A DNA stretch of 64,000 bases from a bacterium (GTDB lineage: Bacteria; Patescibacteriota; Gracilibacteria; Absconditabacterales; Absconditicoccaceae): positions 62,001 to 126,000 of the forward strand of contig JAHDFY010000002.1 in NCBI GenBank assembly GCA_020627925.1. The letters are read 5' to 3'. A program made the translations under genes and the position numbers. The notes under the pieces were generated by a model that was not told the DNA's origin, searched no databases, and worked only from the letters and a program-made list of their open reading frames with translations. Every line of letters begins with the position of its first letter. Position 1 is the first letter of the stretch. Positions 8,373 to 53,959 of the stretch are shown here, piece by piece.

Positions 8373-8396
8373 ACAGAGCTTAATGCTCTGTTTTTT
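8373..8396. terminator. terminator between convergent ybaB and an unknown gene
   Basis: The 7-bp stem ACAGAGC/GCTCTGT with a 5-base loop is followed by a T run on the plus strand. The stop codon of the minus-strand gene (8380-8382) lies in the hairpin, so one element closes both genes. Confidence 0.75.
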
Positions 8397-9891
8397 GTTT
8401 GGGAGAAAATAACTGTATGAGGTCGTTGTTTGGTGATCATCGGCGAAAAAAAATAGCAGATTCTGGTTTGTGCTCTTTGATGTTTTGTTGGCTCACATAG
8501 GTATCTATTGGATTGACCCTATACTCCTCTTTTTCTCCGTTTATTTTATTACTATCTTCTCCAAATGAGATAAAATAGTTTGCTTCGGTTTGTTGTAGCG
8601 CATTATCAACATAAGCAGCTATACCATTTCATTTAGGGTTATTGGGCCCCGAAAGTTTGTTTGATCGGTCGGTGTCGACAGGCAATTTTGCTGCAAAAAA
8701 TTTATAAAAAGTCTTGTTGTCGCTTCCTTTTACTAGATAATAGTGCTCTTGTTCGGAATAAGCTATTATTTTTTTGAAATGGTTTCCATGGTTGACAATA
8801 TTTTCAAGAGTCGTTTCATTGATACTCATGACTCAAAAGTCGTTGGCTCAGACTGTTTGTTGCTCTTGATACCCGTTATGAAGGATAAGCTGGCTTGTGC
8901 GATTAGTGAGTGATGGTGGTGTTTCACTGCCCGGTAAATCAAATCAAGGAAAACAGCTTAGAACAATAGTGATGGTGTCATTTTTGTTGGATTGTTTTGC
9001 GTGTAGGAGTGTATCGAGAAAGAGAGCTGTATATTGTGCAAAATCATTAGCAGAAAGCTGTGGCGTTATATGTACAAAAGATTGTTGTTCAAGGTGAGCA
9101 TATGCTTCTTTGTTGGTAATCTCATTAAGATAGGCAAGCAAAAAACTACATACATAATTACCACTTCATGAGCCAGTTGTCGTAATGAATGCCTGGGAGT
9201 CCTCTGTTTGACTCAGTAGTATATGAGGAATCGTGTTACCAAAAGAAAGGCCTCGTTCTGATGATTCACGAATTATTTTGTACAAATGGGCGTCTTTTTT
9301 GTTTTGTCATGATTGTTCCCAAAAATAATGTGCGCTGTATTTTCCTTCTCTTCGTTGTTTGTCTAGGGTGAGAAAATTTTGTGTAAGAAGCTCTTTGAGA
9401 TGACGAGATGTTGCAAATGGAAGCAAACAAAAACGTGAAATACTATTTGCATCGTATGTTTCTGTAATGATATGAATGTTGTCTTGATTAATATTTTGAC
9501 AAATATTATATATTTCACCCATTTCTTTGATTGCATACAAGTAGCTTTTTACTATTTTTTCAAAATTACTGTAATAAAGTGCCGCGTTTTCATTATGAAA
9601 TTGATCAAATATTTTTGTTGCGCTGCTATCGCTTGCTATTGTATGGACTTTTTCTTTCCAAGTTTCCAAAAATTCTTTATGGTCTTGGTAAACATTTTCA
9701 GGTAGGTGAAATATTTCTTTGAGCTGTTTTTTGTCTAAGGTCTGAATTTGTAGCAAGGCTTCTGCTAGATAAGTAGAATAATACGTCAATGAAGAAGCAG
9801 TTGCAGATCCATTAATCAATGCATGAACAAGTGCCAACATGTAGATGTTTTTTTTGATTATTCTACTTGTGTAGTGAGGTTGTATTTCCAT
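8380..9891 (-). CDS. protein of unknown function, 503 residues
   Basis: No family is recognised. The frame is continuous over 1.5 kb only with seven TGA codons read as Gly. The N-terminus has a short hydrophobic stretch (IYMLALVHALI, residues 17-27) that could be a helix or weak anchor. The middle part is helical with many Asn and Tyr. A glycine-rich TTGSGSGNYV lies near residue 238. An Asp-rich segment (TDTITIV-like, NDTITIVLSCFPGFDLPGS) may be a buried strand with a following loop. It shares strand and AT-rich composition with the next unknown gene (10007-10819), and the two may work together. Confidence 0.7.
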
Positions 9892-10006: not shown

Positions 10007-10819
10007 TTATGACTGTGTTTCTATTATTTCTTCTGCAATGTGTAGTGAATCAAAACGAGTTTGTTCTATCATATAATCACTAATAATGGTAGAAAGGTTT
10101 TGATAATTAGGTGAAATGACATAGATATCTTTGTTTTTTACTCCTTCACGCTGTAATTCTTCTTTGAGGTTTGCGAGGTATGGGTCGGTTGGCAATACAT
10201 CTAATGCCAGCACTACATTGTTATTGGTCTTGCAGCTTTCGAAAAAATCAGGAGTGAATGCAAAATCATATCTATTGATTGCAAACAAGTTGAATGCCTC
10301 TTGTTTTTTTTGTTGTATATAAAAATGTGCGTTGGTGAGTTCTGGTAGGTAAGCAGCACTTCCCAAAACCGTTGTGGTGTTTCATGAATAAGAAAATGGT
10401 CTCATATCGATGAGTCATGATTTTCCCGTAGGGTGACCTTCAAAAAGCTGTTCTGGATATTCTTTATCGTATAGTCTAATAATTGCTTTTTTTTGTGATC
10501 AGATTAACTCGATCATTTGTCCTAAGTCATATGCTTCATAGGTTTTTCGTCATGTGTGTTCAATAGTACTTTCGCTTATTTTATGAAGCTTGGATGAGAT
10601 TCATGCGAAACAGTCGATAATGATGCTGCGTTCACTATTTGTAGGTTGGTTGATGTAATAATCTGCCGGAAGTTTATGAGCGATAAACAATGTGGTGTTC
10701 CCTTCTTTGTTTGTTTCTTGGTTGCTTTCGGGATTTTCAAAAAATATTTTCTGGATGTTTTTCTTGTTTTGTATGTCATTCACGAATGTTCCGTATGCAA
10801 CGTATTTACTGAGGTTCAT
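10007..10819 (-). CDS. protein of unknown function, 270 residues
   Basis: The frame from ATG 10819 includes five TGA codons read as Gly. No family is recognised. Visible features are a hydrophilic start (NLSKYVAYGTFVND), a putative strand SERSIIIDCFAG near residue 65, KAIIRLYDKEYPEQLFEG, the glycine-rich PFSYSGNTTTVLGSAAYL and a C-terminal half with NVVLALDVLPTDPYL and KDIYVISPNY. The alternating strands and helices suggest an alpha/beta fold. It lies 17 bases after dnaE and may be its operon partner. Confidence 0.7.
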
Positions 10820-10836
10820 GGTAAGTAATACTTATG

Positions 10837-13800
10837 TTATGAAAGTAATTGAGTAATTTGTTCTGCACCTTGCGGGCTAACTGATATTTTTTTTGTCCCA
10901 ATAGTCATCTCTTGTGATCCTGGATTGTCTTTGATGATGCCAATGATCTTTTGCAAAATAGACATAGATTCTGGAAGTGGAAAAGTTGTGGTTGGTCATT
11001 GTTCGCTTTTTTTTGTCTCTTCTGGTGGTGTTGTCACTTCTTGTGTTTGATGTTCTTTTGAGATGTTTGCTTCTTTGTCTGCTTTTTTTGTTGTTTCTTG
11101 CTGTTGAGTGTTGTTGGTTTGGTTATTGTTTGTCGCTTGTGTCATTGGAGTTGCTAGTTTGTCTTGTAGACGTACTTTAGATTTTCTCGATGCTTTTACT
11201 TTTGCGACAGTTCGTTCAGGGTCAAACTTCTTTGTTCTTTTTGCCTTATTGACTAATTCGTCCAGTGTTACTTTAACCATGTGATCAATGGTAGTTGTTC
11301 TTCACTTGTATCACTTGATATGAAATATATCAAACAGTTTGATGTCTAACATTTCTTTGAGGAATATTTCGAAGCTATCGGTTGAATCTTCTAGCGTAAC
11401 AAAAAATCATTTTTTTCTTGCTCTTTGAATTTTTTTGACATATGCAGTAATGTGAAACTCCCCCGCTTCAGGAACATCTTTGAACTGAGTAATGAAATTC
11501 TTCTTTTTGAGTACAGGATAGAGCCCATCAAATGGATGACCAACGATAAATGTTTTGAATATATCAAAGTCCATTAATAGCTTTTCCATCATAGGAGTTT
11601 CGTATCTTTTGGTGAATTCTAGTTTTGATTCGATCATTCCTCCAAATAGACCAGCACCCATATTTTTACTTGCTTTGGTTCGTTCTATGATTTGAGGTAC
11701 TGCTTCAAGCATTGTTTTACGATCATCGAAGCAATCAAAAGCACCTGATTTGATTAGAGATTCTAATGACTTTTTGGTAATAATTGTTTCACATCTTGTA
11801 AGAAAATCTTCAAGAGAGCTGAATGGTCCATTTTTGTTTCTCTCTTCTTCGATAAACTCTCCGACACTATACCCTATTCCTTTACACGCAAGAAATCCTA
11901 TTCTCACATGATCTTCTACTGCAGCCACATGATTATATGATTTGTTTACATCGGGAGGTAAAATATTGAGTCCCGCAGTCAAAATTTCATCAATAAAGAA
12001 ACTGAATTTATCCGTATCCTCTTCTACCGATCTCAGCAGTGCTGCATAAAATTCTAACGGATAGTGAGCTTTGAGAAATCAAGTTTGATAAGCAATGTGT
12101 GAATAACATGCAGCATGCGATTTGTTGAATGAGTAAGCTGCCGCCGGCTCAATCATTTTTTCGTAAATGATTTTTCCTGTTTCTGGTTTATAACCTCTGT
12201 GTGATTGTGATCTTTCGATGAATTCTTTTTTGAGTTTTTCTATTACTTTTTTCTTCTTTTTACCCACTCATCTTCTCAATAAGTCCGCTTCAGGTAGAGA
12301 AAATCATGCCATACTTTGTACCAAAAACATTAGCTGTTCTTGATAAACAGCAATACCGTAAGTAATTCCCATAATAGGATCAAGATCTTCAATTAGTTTC
12401 TTTCTCTCCTCTTCTATAAGGTCCTTTTCTTCTGGGTATTTTTCTTTGAGGATATTTTCCAGCACAGGAAGCATGTAGTCAATTTCTTCTTTTCCATGTT
12501 TTCTGTTGATGTAGGTAGGGATAAATTCCATAGGACCAGGACGATACAGTGCCGCCATTGCAATCAAATCATTGATGTTATTGGGTTCTAGCATTACAAG
12601 AAACCTTCTCATTCATTGTCATTCAAATTGGAAGATACCTGAAGTATCTCATTTTTGAAACACTTGTTCATATGTATAAATATCATTTAATGATGGTTCA
12701 AATTGCATGGTATCCAAAAAATTTTGGAATAGACTTGGAAGTTCTTTTCCTTGATATTCTTTGATTGCTCTTTGTGACAAACCATTGTAATAGATTGGCA
12801 CTCACTCATGACCTACTTTGTGCCTTGCTGCAATAATTTTTATTGCGTTTTTGATCACAGAAAGATTTCTTAGTCACAAAAAATCCATTTTGAGAAGACC
12901 AATTGTTTCCAATGTTGGACCGTCATATTGACTTACAAATCAATCATTTCATTTTCCCATTGGTTGTATTGCTGTGTATTCTGTGATGTTTTCTGGAGCA
13001 ATAATGAATCAACAAGCATGTACTCATGTTTGTCTTAGGTTTCATTCTAATTTTCCTCATAGGTCTATTGCTTTCTTTACTATTTCATCGTTGTCGTAGT
13101 AATTTTTGATTTCTTCATTGTTTTCTGCTGTAGTAACAGCTTGTAGTAAGGATGCTTTTTCGGGTATGATGTTTGATATTTTATTTGCTTTATCAAAGGG
13201 AATTCCCATTGCTCTTGCTGCATCTTTGAATGCTGCTTTGGTCGCCATTTTCATATAGGTTCCAATGTAGCATACTTTGCTTTTCCCATATTTGTGCGTC
13301 ACGTATTCGATAACTCTTTCTCTCTGTGTATCTTCAAAATCGATATCGAAATCGGGCATCGATATACGGGCAGGATTAAGAAATCTCTCAAAGAGGAGAT
13401 CATACGCAAACGGGTTTATTTCCGTGATACCTGTCACCCACGCTAATAGCGATCAGGCCCCTGATCATCTTCCAGGTCCTACCACGATGTCATTTTCTCT
13501 TGCCCAATTTACAAAATCAGAAACAATCAACATATACGTGTTGAATCACATTTCTTTGATCACTTTGAGCTCATACTCAAGTCTTTCTATATATTTGTCG
13601 AGCGTATCATAGGGAAGTTCTTGTGTGCTGTACTTTTTGAGCTTTTTTCTTTTGTAGTTACTGTAAGTATCTGTTGTTAATTGTTTTAGCTCAGTAGGGG
13701 AAATTTCTTGGATTTTTTTGTCAGGAACTCACTGATTACTAATTTGCACCAATTGAATGAGGTCTTTTTCTTCCCATCATAATGAAAATTTATGTCCTAA

Positions 13801-13845
13801 TCCTTTGAATGATTTGTAACGTAGTTCAAATTCAAAAATATCCAT
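10837..13845 (-). CDS. dnaE: DNA polymerase III alpha subunit lacking the PHP domain
   Basis: It is the replicative polymerase catalytic subunit, here 1002 residues. The palm begins near RLEYELKVIKEMGF, and GPGRGSGAGS has two TGA glycines. Catalytic Asp165 and Asp167 are in PDFDIDFED, and the third Asp (321) is in KMDFLGLRNL. In E. coli these are Asp401, 403 and 555, so about 235 N-terminal residues, the PHP domain, are missing. An in-frame TAG lies just upstream of ATG 13845 and a terminator lies beyond that, so no longer frame exists. The fingers, helix-hairpin-helix and OB regions follow. The tail is an unusual Asn/Gln/Thr-rich linker and a small terminal domain (MTIGTKKISVSPQG). Confidence 0.93.
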
Positions 13846-13913
13846 TGATCAAAGCTGTATTCACTAAAGTATGCAACACTATGTTGTGTGCTATTGGTTG
13901 TTTTTTTTGATAA

Positions 13914-13945
13914 TAAAAAAAACTTCCCCAAAGGGAAGTCTTTTT
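13914..13945. terminator. bidirectional terminator after the VirB2-like gene
   Basis: The stem ACTTCCC/GGGAAGT with a 4-base loop is flanked by an A run and a T run, so it can act both ways. It ends the minus-strand gene at 13977-14399 and insulates dnaE, which starts 69 bases further on. Confidence 0.8.
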
Positions 13946-13976: not shown

Positions 13977-14399
13977 TTAATTGGTAACCAATCAGAACAC
14001 AAAGAATATGAAAGTTACTAGGAACCATGAGATACCTATAAATCAGATACCGATAGCTGCATTTCTGAGAATTTGCATTCCAGACTTGGTTGCTCCTTCG
14101 TCTTCACCTCCGGTAACGATCTTCCATCCTCCGTAAAGTAGCATGATAAGAGCAACTAATCCTAGGAATCCTAGAACGTAATTGATAAGATTCTTTATTA
14201 CTTGAATAATTCTGTCTCCTTGATCTGTGTCTGTCCCTCCAGCAACATTTATTCCACCTTGTACAGGGGAATTTGATGTTGTTTGATCCCAAGAAGATGG
14301 GATATTAGAACCCTGTGCATTCACGGGATTTACTGCAATAGTACTCAGTCCAAAGACAGCCATTATTGACATAAAGAATCCTAACACGAGCTTTTTCAT
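13977..14399 (-). CDS. TrbC/VirB2-like small membrane protein
   Basis: The 140-residue protein has a signal peptide (MKKLVLGFFMSIMAVFGLS, cleavage likely after VNA), a polar Ser/Gly linker, then a hydrophobic helix (LGFLGLVALIMLLYGGW), a short charged loop (VTGGEDEG) and a second hydrophobic helix near the C-terminus. This layout matches VirB2/TrbC pilins and the related small membrane proteins common in Candidate Phyla bacteria. It could be a surface filament subunit or part of a secretion pore. No other secretion genes adjoin, but a PilB/GspE-type ATPase lies at 43-44.6 kb. Two TGA glycines occur in the second helix region. Confidence 0.7.
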
Positions 14400-14606
14400 G
14401 TGTTACGTAAGTATAAACTAAAGTGTTTTGATTGATGCTATGTCCTCATTATACACTGCTTTGGTGTAAAAAGCAAATTTTTTGGCCACTTTTTTGTTGT
14501 TATGTGCTTTGGCGTAATCTTTCGTGATTTTATTGTTTAGGATTGCATCGTTTTGCGATATGTGTATATTGGTTTGTGAAACTATTTCGCTATCTATTGA
14601 CTATTC

Positions 14607-17186
14607 ATGGCTAAAAAAAAACTTTTTTCCTACATAAACCATTATCATCAACTTTTGTTCAAAAAACTTTCTGCTCAAATACCTGCGATCAAGCAAATGG
14701 GTAATCGCAAAGAGTTTGCTATTTTTCTGTTGTTTGTGTTCTTTTTTCTTGTTGTCTTGTTGAGAATATTTTATTTACAAATTGTGAGAGCTCCCTATTA
14801 TGATGCGTGGCTTACTGGTCAGCACTTAAGAGAAGCGAAGCTAGTCGCTCAAAGATGACATATTTACGTGACTGACAGTTCTGATAAATCTTTGCAACTC
14901 ACAGAAAACATCACCTTATACAATCTTTTTGTTGATCCTGAACATATTAGTAATAAAGATCATTTTATTTCTCTTATTACTCCGGTTGTCTATTATCACT
15001 TATGTAAAATCAATGGTTTTGAGAGAGTGGATAAGAGAACATGTATCGAAAATATTGAAGATTTTACAAAAGAAACATTAATTCCTGAAGCCCCTGAGGT
15101 GTTCTATTTTGGGAGTGGTCTGTATTCTGAAGAACATTACACTTATGATTGGGATAGTTATAATCAAGAGGTGGATACTATTATTACTACTTTTTCTGGA
15201 CAACAAGCAATGGCCTTAATTTCTGAAAAATTGACAGAGCGTATCAAGGTAGGTTTTAGAGAATATAATCCGCTTGGTTTTTTTTCGGATGACCTTGTTG
15301 ATGATTTGAGAGAGCTTGCCCTTCCTTATGTGACGATTAGATATGGAAACTATGTTTATATACAGCCAGAAAAAGTATCAAACCCTACGATAGCAAAAAA
15401 TATTTTGGATCCTATTTTTCTCAAATATGACCAAGGAAATGTAGTAGAGTTTTTACCCAAAGCCTTGGAAAAACAAAAACACAGGTATGTCAGACTACTC
15501 ACGGACGCAAATCCTGAAATAGCACTGCTTATCAAACAACTCAAAATTCTTGATTTCTATCGTGGAAAAAAAGAAAAAGAGGTATATCTGAACAAATTGG
15601 CGTTTGAGTTTGATTTTTTCGAGTATTATAGAGACATTCTCGAGACTATTTATTCTCTTGATTATAATCCAAAAGTAAGGTACCTTTATAGAAATACACA
15701 CAAAGAAGAAGGATATAAATATATCAAAGCGCCACAAAGAGAGCTGTATGGTTTGTGAATAGAGCCTTACACCAAAAGATATTACCCTTATAATAATTTT
15801 ATGTCGCATGTGTTGTGATATATCAATGATGATGGTAAACCATATCATGGTATTGAAGAATATTATCACGATATACTGAGATGACAAAACGGAAAAATTA
15901 CTTGACGCTCCTCTGCTTGGGTTGGACAAATTGGAGCGAATGATTTTGAAATTGATAAAGTAGAACATGGACAAGATATTTATTTGACCGTAGATCCTTC
16001 TATTCAAAGACAGGTAGAACAAATAGCAGAACGTTTTCACAAATTTTTTAGGGCAGATAGTTTGAGTGTGTTGGTGTATGATCCTTATTCAGGTCATATT
16101 GTTTCTTCAGTAAATTATCCTAATTTTAATCCTAATACTTATTATGAAGCCTATGGGTTGAGGCCATTGACTGAGTTTGATGAATATGTCATCGATGACA
16201 ATACTCATTTGGATATTCCCATTTATATCAAAACTGGCGATAGAATAAGGCAGGCATTTTCTTATGAAAGGGATGATGTGACATTGCCCAAGTATATTAG
16301 TAACAATATTTTTGGACCGACTGCTTTTGCTGATAAAAATATTACCTATGCATACGAACCAGGTTCTATTTTTAAAGCATTTACTTACGCTATTGGATTA
16401 GATTCTGATGAGATAGATATGTATGATCTGTATGATGATCCTTATGGAGAGGTTGATGTTGGTCAGTTTACGATTAAGAATGCTGATGATAAATGTACAG
16501 GGACTCATAACTTTCTTTTTGCCTTGCAGTATTCATGTAATGTAGGAATGGTGAGAATTGCACAGAACATTACAAGATATGTATTTTATAATTACATAGA
16601 AAAACTTGGTTTTGGTCAATATACTAATATTGAGCTTGGATGAGAAGATAAATGATTTGTGGAGTCTGTAAACAAGGCATCGGATGCGAGGTTTTATAAT
16701 AATACGTTTGGACAGTGATTGCTTGCAACGCCTTTGCAAATAGCAGTCGCATATTGATCATTCTTTAATGGTGGTTATTATATGAAACCAACTATCGTAA
16801 AAAAAATCTGTGATGGCACAGAGTGTCAGCCAGTCACAGCCAAAAAAATAAGGAGAATTTTTGGTGAAGATATCGCCGAAAAAATGAAAGAATCACTACT
16901 AAAAGTAATGGATAATCCAGGTAATCAGAAGTTTTCATTTTTGGAAGGTTATACATTGGGTGGAAAAAGTGGAACATCGCAAATTGCTTATAAAGGTAAG
17001 TATAGACAATGAGAATGATGGACTAATGGTTCTTTTGTATGAATTGTTACTGAAGACAACCTTAAATATGTTGTTGTTGTGCAAGTTCGTCGCCCTAGAC
17101 AAAGTCAATGGTGAGGTGAAACAGCAGGTCGTGTATTCAAAGAAGTGGCAGAATTTCTTGTAGGATATGATTTAATTGATAAATAA
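14607..17186 (+). CDS. penicillin-binding protein transpeptidase (PBP2/FtsI type)
   Basis: It cross-links peptidoglycan peptides outside the membrane. The 859 residues are longer than a typical class B PBP (about 580-650). A cytoplasmic N-terminus is followed by one membrane helix (FAIFLLFVFFFLVVLLRIFY, about 32-51), a large dimerisation region (to about 470) and the transpeptidase domain. Catalytic motifs are complete: S587-I-F-K in EPGSIFK, S643-C-N in YSCNVG and K787-S-G-T in GGKSGTS. The extra length lies mostly between the anchor and the catalytic domain. About a dozen TGA glycines occur. It runs into the DHH gene, whose start is 5 bases after this stop. Confidence 0.92.
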
Positions 17187-17190
17187 CCCG

Positions 17191-18216
17191 ATGGTTGTAG
17201 AACAAATAAATAACACTATGATAGCAAAATTACGTGACATTATTGAAAGCGGAGATTCTTTTGCTTTGTTTGGTCATAGAAATATTGATGGAGATGCATT
17301 AGGATCTATGTTGGGACTGGGAGGTGTACTTGAAAAATTAGATAAAAACGTACGCTACTTTACTTCCAATGAGCCTTCTGTTGTTTTTGATTTTGTTCAA
17401 TGAAGGGAAAAAGTAGATACTGAGTTTGACTATGGGGAATATGATGCCTTAATTTTCCTGGATTTTTCTCCATATGACCGTATTGAAGAATTCACCAAAG
17501 AACATGAAGCGTGGTTTGACGAACAAACACTTATTGTGATAGATCATCATCACGGTGATGCTCCTGAACATGCTTCTGTTGTGCTTAAAGACGTTACCTC
17601 AATGAGTAATGCTGAGCGAGTATATAAGATTATTACTATGCTTTGGGAAGATAAAATAGATAGCACTATTGCAACTAACCTGTACTTATGACTTGCGACT
17701 GATAGCGGTAATTTTGTTTACGATAATAAACAACAGTCTCCTTGAGTGATGCGTACTGCGTATGAGCTTATAATGAAATGAGCAGATAAGCAGCTTATTG
17801 TAGAAAAAATGTTTCGTAGTAAGTCGCTTGCTTCAGTAGAATATATGCAACTTGTATTGCAAAGAATGAAACACTACCAATGAAATATCTTGACCTCGTA
17901 TATGCTTGAAGAAGAACTGAAAGAAAAATGACTAGACAGATATCAATGATGATATGCGCAACCATTGATGCAACAAATCAAATGAATTGACCTCATAATT
18001 TTATTTAAACATAACTACGAAAAAGCCTCTATGAGCTGTTCATTGAGAGGAAGAAATAAATATGATTGTTCAAAGATTGCTCAAAGCTATGGTGGTGGTT
18101 GACATTTTAATGCAGCTGGTTGCAGAATTCCAGTTGGCGATAGAAATTTTGAAGAAGCGATGCTGAGAACTATTGATGAAATATATGAAAATTATGTAAA
18201 GAAAGCATCTAATTAA
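17191..18216 (+). CDS. DHH family phosphoesterase (NrnA-like)
   Basis: It belongs to the DHH/DHHA1 superfamily that hydrolyses nanoRNA, pAp or cyclic dinucleotides. In 341 residues motif I is GHRNIDGDALGS, a further metal-site Asp is in LIFLDFSPYD, DHH appears as VIDHHHGD, and the DHHA1 domain ends with GGGGHFNAAGC, whose fourth glycine is TGA. Which substrate is used cannot be told. ATG 17191 is chosen; an upstream in-frame TTG (17176) overlaps the previous gene, and a later ATG (17218) is also possible. It is probably co-transcribed with the penicillin-binding protein. Confidence 0.88.
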
Positions 18217-52990: not shown

Positions 52991-53959
52991 ATGACACAAC
53001 AAGAAACAGTATTAGTGACAGGGACAAGTTGATTTATTGGTTTTCATTTGGCAACACGTTTGTTGAATAGGTGACACAAAGTTGTTTGAATTGATAATGA
53101 AAATGATTACTATGATCAACAATTAAAGCGTGACAGAAGGTCAAAACTTGAAAAAAGTCAAAATTTTTCTTTTTATTCTGCTGATTTACAAAACATTGAG
53201 TCTTGTGCTCAGATTTTTCTTGATCACAGAATAGACAGAGTTGTTAATCTAGCTGCATATGCAGGTGTGAGGTACAGTATGCAAAATCCATTTCCTTATA
53301 TTCAAACCAATTTGGTTGGTTTTCATAATATTTTACAGTTAGCCAAAGATTATAAAGTAAAAAATTTTCTTTATGCTTCAAGCGCATCTGTTTATGGAAA
53401 AAACACTCCCCCATTTGACGTGAAAGATAAAACAGAAAATCCTCTTTCTTTGTATGCGGCGTCCAAGAAAGCAAATGAACTAATTGCTCATAGTTATAAT
53501 AATCTGTTTTGAATTAAAACTACCTGACTAAGGTTTTTTAATGTGTATGGTACATGGTGAAGGCCTGATAGCGCATTGTATCTTTTTACCAAAAATATTT
53601 CCGAAGGTAAACCTATTAACTTGTTTAATCATGGTAAAATGAAAAGGAACTTCACTTACGTCGATGATGTTGTTGACTGAATAATGAAAGCGTTGCGAAT
53701 TGAGTCAGACTACGAAATAATCAATTTGTGAAATCCTGAAGTTGTCGAACTAATGTATTTTGTAGAAAGAATAGAACACGAGCTTTGAAAAAAAGCATCA
53801 ATTAATATGATGCCTATTCAGCCATGAGAAATAGAGACAAGTATGGTAAATATTAATCATACAAAAGACCTGCTTGACTGACGAGAACCAAAAATAATTG
53901 TTGATGAATGAGTGCATCGTTTTATTAAATGGTTTGTTGATTACCACAACTGCCCTTAG
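52991..53959 (+). CDS. NAD-dependent epimerase, UDP-glucuronate 4-epimerase type
   Basis: The 322-residue SDR enzyme shows the NAD motif TGTSGFIGFH (second glycine TGA), YGKNTPPF and [15 protein letters not shown] with the catalytic Tyr and Lys, plus [12 protein letters not shown] and [10 protein letters not shown]. The pattern is that of UDP-glucuronate/UDP-glucose 4-epimerases that make glycan precursors. Nine TGA glycines are read. Its end overlaps the converging family 4 glycosyltransferase by about 35 bases. Confidence 0.85.

What the first reader, a model, noticed from the sequence alone, without database searches (positions are those of the whole stretch)
10837..13845. Replicative polymerase DnaE without its PHP domain
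Catalytic Asp residues lie at 165, 167 and 321, versus 401, 403 and 555 in E. coli, so about 235 N-terminal residues are absent. An in-frame TAG just upstream and a terminator beyond it leave no room. Either the PHP part is encoded elsewhere or this lineage has lost it.
Basis: partly seen in the sequence, partly recalled or inferred. Interest (0 to 1): 0.7.

Follow-up and report, generated by a model that had tools for sequence, protein, structure and literature searches.

The report
Replicative polymerase split into two genes
In this family of tiny bacteria (SR1/Absconditabacteria, which read UGA as glycine) the main DNA-copying enzyme, a single chain in the bacteria surveyed so far, is encoded as two separate genes, with its front (PHP) domain made from a gene elsewhere on the chromosome.

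Summary
The dnaE gene (window 10837-13845, minus) starts after the PHP domain, behind an in-frame TAG and a terminator. The PHP part is not lost. The genome has one PHP match, a 312-314 aa ORF 18.4 kb away on the opposite strand (G000:C1:53508-54446, about 7.6 kb outside the window). DnaE profiles match this ORF at positions 1-293 and the window ORF from 299 on, so the two pieces tile one DnaE with nothing missing. The PHP ORF's predicted fold matches DnaE best. In all 36 family genomes with both matches the two are never adjacent, up to 337 kb apart in closed genomes. In all 116 scorable genomes of other families in the class, including UGA=Gly relatives, they lie together. The polymerase tree needs one origin. 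The cut lies in the linker between PHP and palm, with no intein or Rfam intron. The PHP piece is under purifying selection but has lost its metal-site motif, so its role is probably structural, as a non-covalent subunit (inferred, not shown). Two published surveys treat the PHP domain as universal in these polymerases; the only split I found reported is the cyanobacterial intein split. One family genome is named SR1/Absconditabacteria.

The parts
10837..13845 (-). dnaE polymerase piece: palm, thumb, fingers, HhH, OB and C-terminal domain, 1002 aa, code 25; no PHP domain
   Evidence: NCBIfam PRK05673 positions 299-1127, E=7e-230; all PDB fold hits at E<=0.001 are DnaE or PolC.
13345..13353 (-). 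Asp165 and Asp167, catalytic carboxylates (SMPDFDIDF)
   Evidence: translation; invariant in alignment A1
12883..12885 (-). Asp321, third catalytic carboxylate (KMDFLGL)
13819..13845 (-). New N-terminus of the polymerase piece (MDIFEFELR), aligned to the palm helix right after the PHP-palm linker of fused relatives
   Evidence: M1, E5, F6 and R9 invariant
13864..13866 (-). In-frame TAG stop six codons upstream of the start
   Evidence: sequence, (start offset 6 codons)
13922..13939 (.). Terminator-like hairpin between dnaE and the pilin-like gene upstream, found in both orientations

Best explanation
The gene is one half of a split dnaE. In the ancestor of this family, in the SR1/Absconditabacteria lineage, dnaE broke in the linker between PHP and palm. 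Both halves kept working and separated in the chromosome. In this genome the PHP half is G000:C1:53508-54446 (+), about 312 aa, and the polymerase half is the window gene. The two proteins most likely refold non-covalently into a normal Pol III alpha. The PHP half would act as a structural subunit, and as a docking site for a proofreading exonuclease where one exists. It is probably not a nuclease, since its metal ligands are largely gone. Shown: two separate intact ORFs that tile one DnaE; a fixed split point; a single origin on the tree; purifying selection on both; no intein domain, no Rfam intron. Inferred: physical assembly, and a structural rather than catalytic role.
For: One PHP match and one polymerase match in the genome. 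P0002 matches DnaE models at 1-293 (PRK05673) and 1-289 (TIGR00594), and P0001 at 299-1127 and 303-1020. Against the fused relative G057, P0002 covers 3-296 and P0001 starts at 311. The PHP model (pLDDT 92.9) best matches Taq, E. coli and M. tuberculosis DnaE (TMq 0.81-0.85); the best PHP protein outside DnaE/PolC is 7ug9 at 0.48. 36 of 36 same-family genomes are split and 116 of 116 scorable genomes of other families adjacent. The 35 split polymerases form one side of one branch, SH-aLRT 100. dN/dS of the PHP half is 0.07-0.28 in the seven close pairs with unsaturated dS, polymerase half 0.05-0.20. In E. coli, PHP mutations lower stability and activity of the whole Pol III, which unfolds cooperatively (PMC3666897).
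Against: No direct evidence of physical association. The PHP-polymerase distance correlation (Mantel r 0.75) is expected of any two vertically inherited genes. The complex was not modelled. The polymerase model has modest confidence (pLDDT 77, 18 sequences; best PDB TMq 0.59), so the interface was not examined. In most draft genomes the halves lie on different contigs; distance is directly shown only where they share a contig.
Confidence: 0.88

Rival explanations
1. The polymerase half works alone, and the free PHP protein has taken on a different job (for example a phosphoesterase or a repair role).
For: The PHP gene is unlinked. In 12 genomes a cluster that includes a UvrD-type helicase lies within four genes downstream on the same strand. 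The PHP half is less conserved (41% mean identity against 63%).
Against: The metal-site motif is lost in every sampled member, so a free phosphoesterase is unlikely. The fold and the residues beyond the PHP core are DnaE-like up to the cut. In E. coli the integrity of the PHP matters for Pol III stability (PMC3666897).
Confidence: 0.08
2. The halves are rejoined covalently, by a split intein (as in cyanobacterial DnaE) or by RNA trans-splicing.
For: Intein-split DnaE exists in cyanobacteria (PMC3919608).
Against: No room for an intein: after DnaE homology the PHP ORF has about 14 residues and the polymerase ORF starts within 5 residues of palm homology. No intein family hit. No Rfam match reaches its gathering score around either end. 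Each ORF has its own start and stop. Untested: introns too divergent for Rfam.
Confidence: 0.02
3. Artefact: sequencing error, wrong genetic code, or misassembly in this genome.
For: The genome is a draft of 10 contigs, 96% complete.
Against: The same split is in 36 genomes, including three single-contig ones with halves 337, 89 and 200 kb apart. UGA=Gly is established for Absconditabacteria (PMC8080830) and is needed to read both ORFs.
Confidence: 0.01

Closest known systems
Bacterial DNA polymerase III alpha subunit, DnaE (NCBIfam TIGR00594 / PRK05673)
   Same: All domains present in the same order when the two ORFs are read together; catalytic Asp triad; fold hits are DnaE.
   Different: Two genes and two chains. 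Surveys of C-family polymerases describe PHP as universally part of them (PMC3919608, PMC12926913). PHP metal site lost, as in E. coli.
Cyanobacterial split DnaE (intein-joined)
   Same: dnaE is also split into two genes.
   Different: There each half carries an intein half and the mature enzyme is one chain (PMC3919608 for the intein split; the rest from general knowledge). Here no intein, and the cut is between PHP and palm rather than inside the polymerase region (cyanobacterial cut position from general knowledge).
Split family-B polymerase of Methanothermobacter (general knowledge, not checked)
   Same: A replicative polymerase encoded as two polypeptides without inteins.
   Different: Archaeal, unrelated polymerase family, different cut.
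E. coli DnaE PHP domain
   Same: Degenerate metal site with a structural role (PMC3666897) and an exonuclease-docking role (PMC3919608).
   Different: Fused to the polymerase.
Free PHP phosphoesterases and RNase AM
   Same: PHP fold.
   Different: Much weaker fold match (TMq 0.48 or less); the only such family among the ORF's NCBIfam matches at E<=0.01 is NF041577 at 23.7 bits against a cut-off of 400.

Membership tests
DnaE (Pol III alpha, TIGR00594/PRK05673) | Polymerase core with PDFDIDF and the third Asp | tested here: met
   P0001 scores 719 bits on TIGR00594 (cut-off 434); Asp residues invariant
DnaE (Pol III alpha, TIGR00594/PRK05673) | N-terminal DnaE-type PHP domain | tested here: met
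   Met by a second gene: P0002 matches PRK05673 positions 5-293, PDB fold hits DnaE
DnaE (Pol III alpha, TIGR00594/PRK05673) | PHP and polymerase on one chain | tested here: not met
   Not adjacent in 36 of 36 family genomes with both matches; separate ORFs wherever translated
DnaE (Pol III alpha, TIGR00594/PRK05673) | Polymerase activity and binding of clamp, tau and epsilon | not testable with these tools
   needs biochemistry
Intein-split DnaE | N-intein at the end of the first half, C-intein at the start of the second | tested here: not met
   Only a few residues beyond DnaE homology at either end, no intein family hit
Catalytically active PHP exonuclease | Nine-residue metal motif HHDHEH[C/H]DH (motif as in PMC12926913) | tested here: not met
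   Own HHEYETGNH; the 4th (His), 6th (His) and 7th (Cys/His) ligands absent in all 36 split sequences

The most novel reading that the evidence does not exclude
A bacterial family has run chromosome replication with an alpha subunit of two independently encoded chains since its origin. It would be a naturally two-subunit C-family polymerase held together without covalent linkage, in which the PHP half could be exchanged or dosed separately.
Probability: 0.85. Interest if true: 0.7.

Novelty: new variant of a known kind. Interest (0 to 1): 0.62.

Why it matters
Surveys of thousands of bacteria treat the PHP domain as an inseparable part of the replicative polymerase, and its role is debated. 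A lineage that has kept PHP as its own gene, with no intact nuclease site, separates structural role from covalent linkage and lets each half be expressed alone and together. The split also marks a clade. Annotation pipelines that expect full-length DnaE, or that read UGA as stop, could miss the PHP piece or call it a stray phosphoesterase.

Tried and rejected
A hidden upstream frame (in-frame TAG, no PHP homology upstream). A second dnaE or polC (one PF07733 match in each family genome that has one). Inteins and introns. Common gene order with fused dnaE in three UGA=Gly relatives and one other: no shared neighbours of the polymerase piece found. The mBio SR1 genome paper is not in the library. 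PHP-polymerase distance correlation carries little weight.

Full report
What is there. Read with UGA=Gly, the minus-strand ORF at 10837-13845 is a 1002-aa DnaE without PHP. Its start lies six codons after an in-frame TAG, with a terminator-like hairpin and another gene beyond it. Catalytic Asp 165, 167 and 321 are confirmed and invariant among relatives.

Where the PHP went. The genome (1.27 Mb, 10 contigs, 96% complete) has exactly one PHP match and one polymerase-core match. The PHP match is an intact ORF at C1:53502-54446 on the plus strand (TTG; the ATG two codons in, at 53508, is the likelier start since most relatives begin there). Its end is 18.4 kb from the nearer end of the window gene; the window begins at C1:62001. 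It matches DnaE models up to position 293 while the window ORF matches from 299 onward. Aligned to the fused DnaE of G057 the halves cover 3-296 and 311 onward; the intervening linker corresponds to the last residues of one ORF and the first of the other. Nothing is missing. The AlphaFold model of the PHP piece (mean pLDDT 92.9) has Taq, E. coli and M. tuberculosis DnaE as its nearest solved structures, far ahead of free PHP enzymes. A profile of the PHP family finds the same in PDB sequences.

How general it is. I compared the places of the two domains over 59 relatives and 145 genomes drawn across the class, fetched the loci of the family and several others and translated them. In all 36 family genomes with both matches the domains are not adjacent: 28 on different contigs, 4 on opposite strands, 4 on one contig at least 4.8 kb apart; single-contig genomes give 337, 89 and 200 kb. 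Where fetched, the PHP ORFs are 295-371 aa (one more is cut by a contig end) and the polymerase ORFs 879-1072 aa. In all 116 genomes of other families where both could be placed, the two domain matches lie 349-748 bases apart in order, as in one gene. That includes families f12, f14, f22 and f24, which also carry in-frame TGA. The seven other-family genes that I translated are single ORFs of 1170-1384 aa. A polymerase tree puts all 35 split sequences on one side of a branch (SH-aLRT 100). The simplest reading is one fission in the family ancestor. The f14 relatives carry a longer PHP-palm linker (LYNEYQDNLSSGLKKLDSDEWYLRY) and the break falls in it; that the longer linker came first and allowed the break is my inference.

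Function. The PHP half is under purifying selection (dN/dS 0.07-0.28), yet the metal-binding motif HHDHEH[C/H]DH reads HHEYETGNH here and is intact in no family member. It was already degraded in the two f14 fused relatives examined. So the PHP half is kept for something other than metal catalysis. In E. coli, whose PHP is also degenerate, mutations in it lower stability and activity of the whole polymerase (PMC3666897), and it binds the epsilon exonuclease (PMC3919608). I conclude that the halves very probably assemble non-covalently. This is inference.

Proofreading. Ten family genomes have a strong match (E below 1e-33) to the RNase_T exonuclease profile; one of them gave the epsilon-like query, and five others among those scanned match it strongly. 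This genome shows only a DEDDh exonuclease at the head of a long protein of at least 700 aa. With a degenerate PHP, its proofreader is not obvious; the genome is 96% complete, so a gene missing from the assembly is possible.

Known or new. The 2013 and 2026 surveys of C-family polymerases treat the PHP domain as a constant part of them; the 2026 text calls it universally present (PMC3919608, PMC12926913). The passages I read mention only the cyanobacterial intein split, and the 2026 text has no mention of Absconditabacteria, SR1 or Patescibacteria. Literature searches found no report of this split, within the open library held here; the original SR1 genome paper is not held. I call it a new variant of a known kind: a DnaE in two genes, at a new cut and without inteins. 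One genome of the family carries the public name SR1; the window's own genome has no name in these tools.

Noticed in passing
L223:1401-3501 (G000 C6): The only RNase_T (DEDDh) match of this genome heads a long protein (at least 700 aa); an epsilon-like short exonuclease is present only in some family genomes, so the proofreader here is unclear.
   Followed up: partly
PHP loci of 12 family genomes, e.g. L086, L076, L093: A gene cluster including a UvrD-type helicase lies one to four genes downstream of the PHP piece on the same strand; in 16 genomes a peptidoglycan-amidase-like gene cluster lies upstream on the opposite strand, usually adjacent.
   Followed up: partly
window 13977-14399 (-), 14553-17186 (+), 17176-18216 (+): Pilin-like small membrane protein, penicillin-binding-protein-like gene and DHH-phosphoesterase-like gene next to the polymerase piece; clusters of these recur near it in 12-16 family genomes.
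   Followed up: partly
L002 (G000 C1:45000-64000): By sequence appearance ftsA-like, ftsZ-like and dnaN-like genes lie between the PHP piece and the window.
   Followed up: no
window 10007-10819 (-) and 8380-9891 (-): Two ORFs downstream of dnaE without an assigned function (270 and 503 aa).
   Followed up: no
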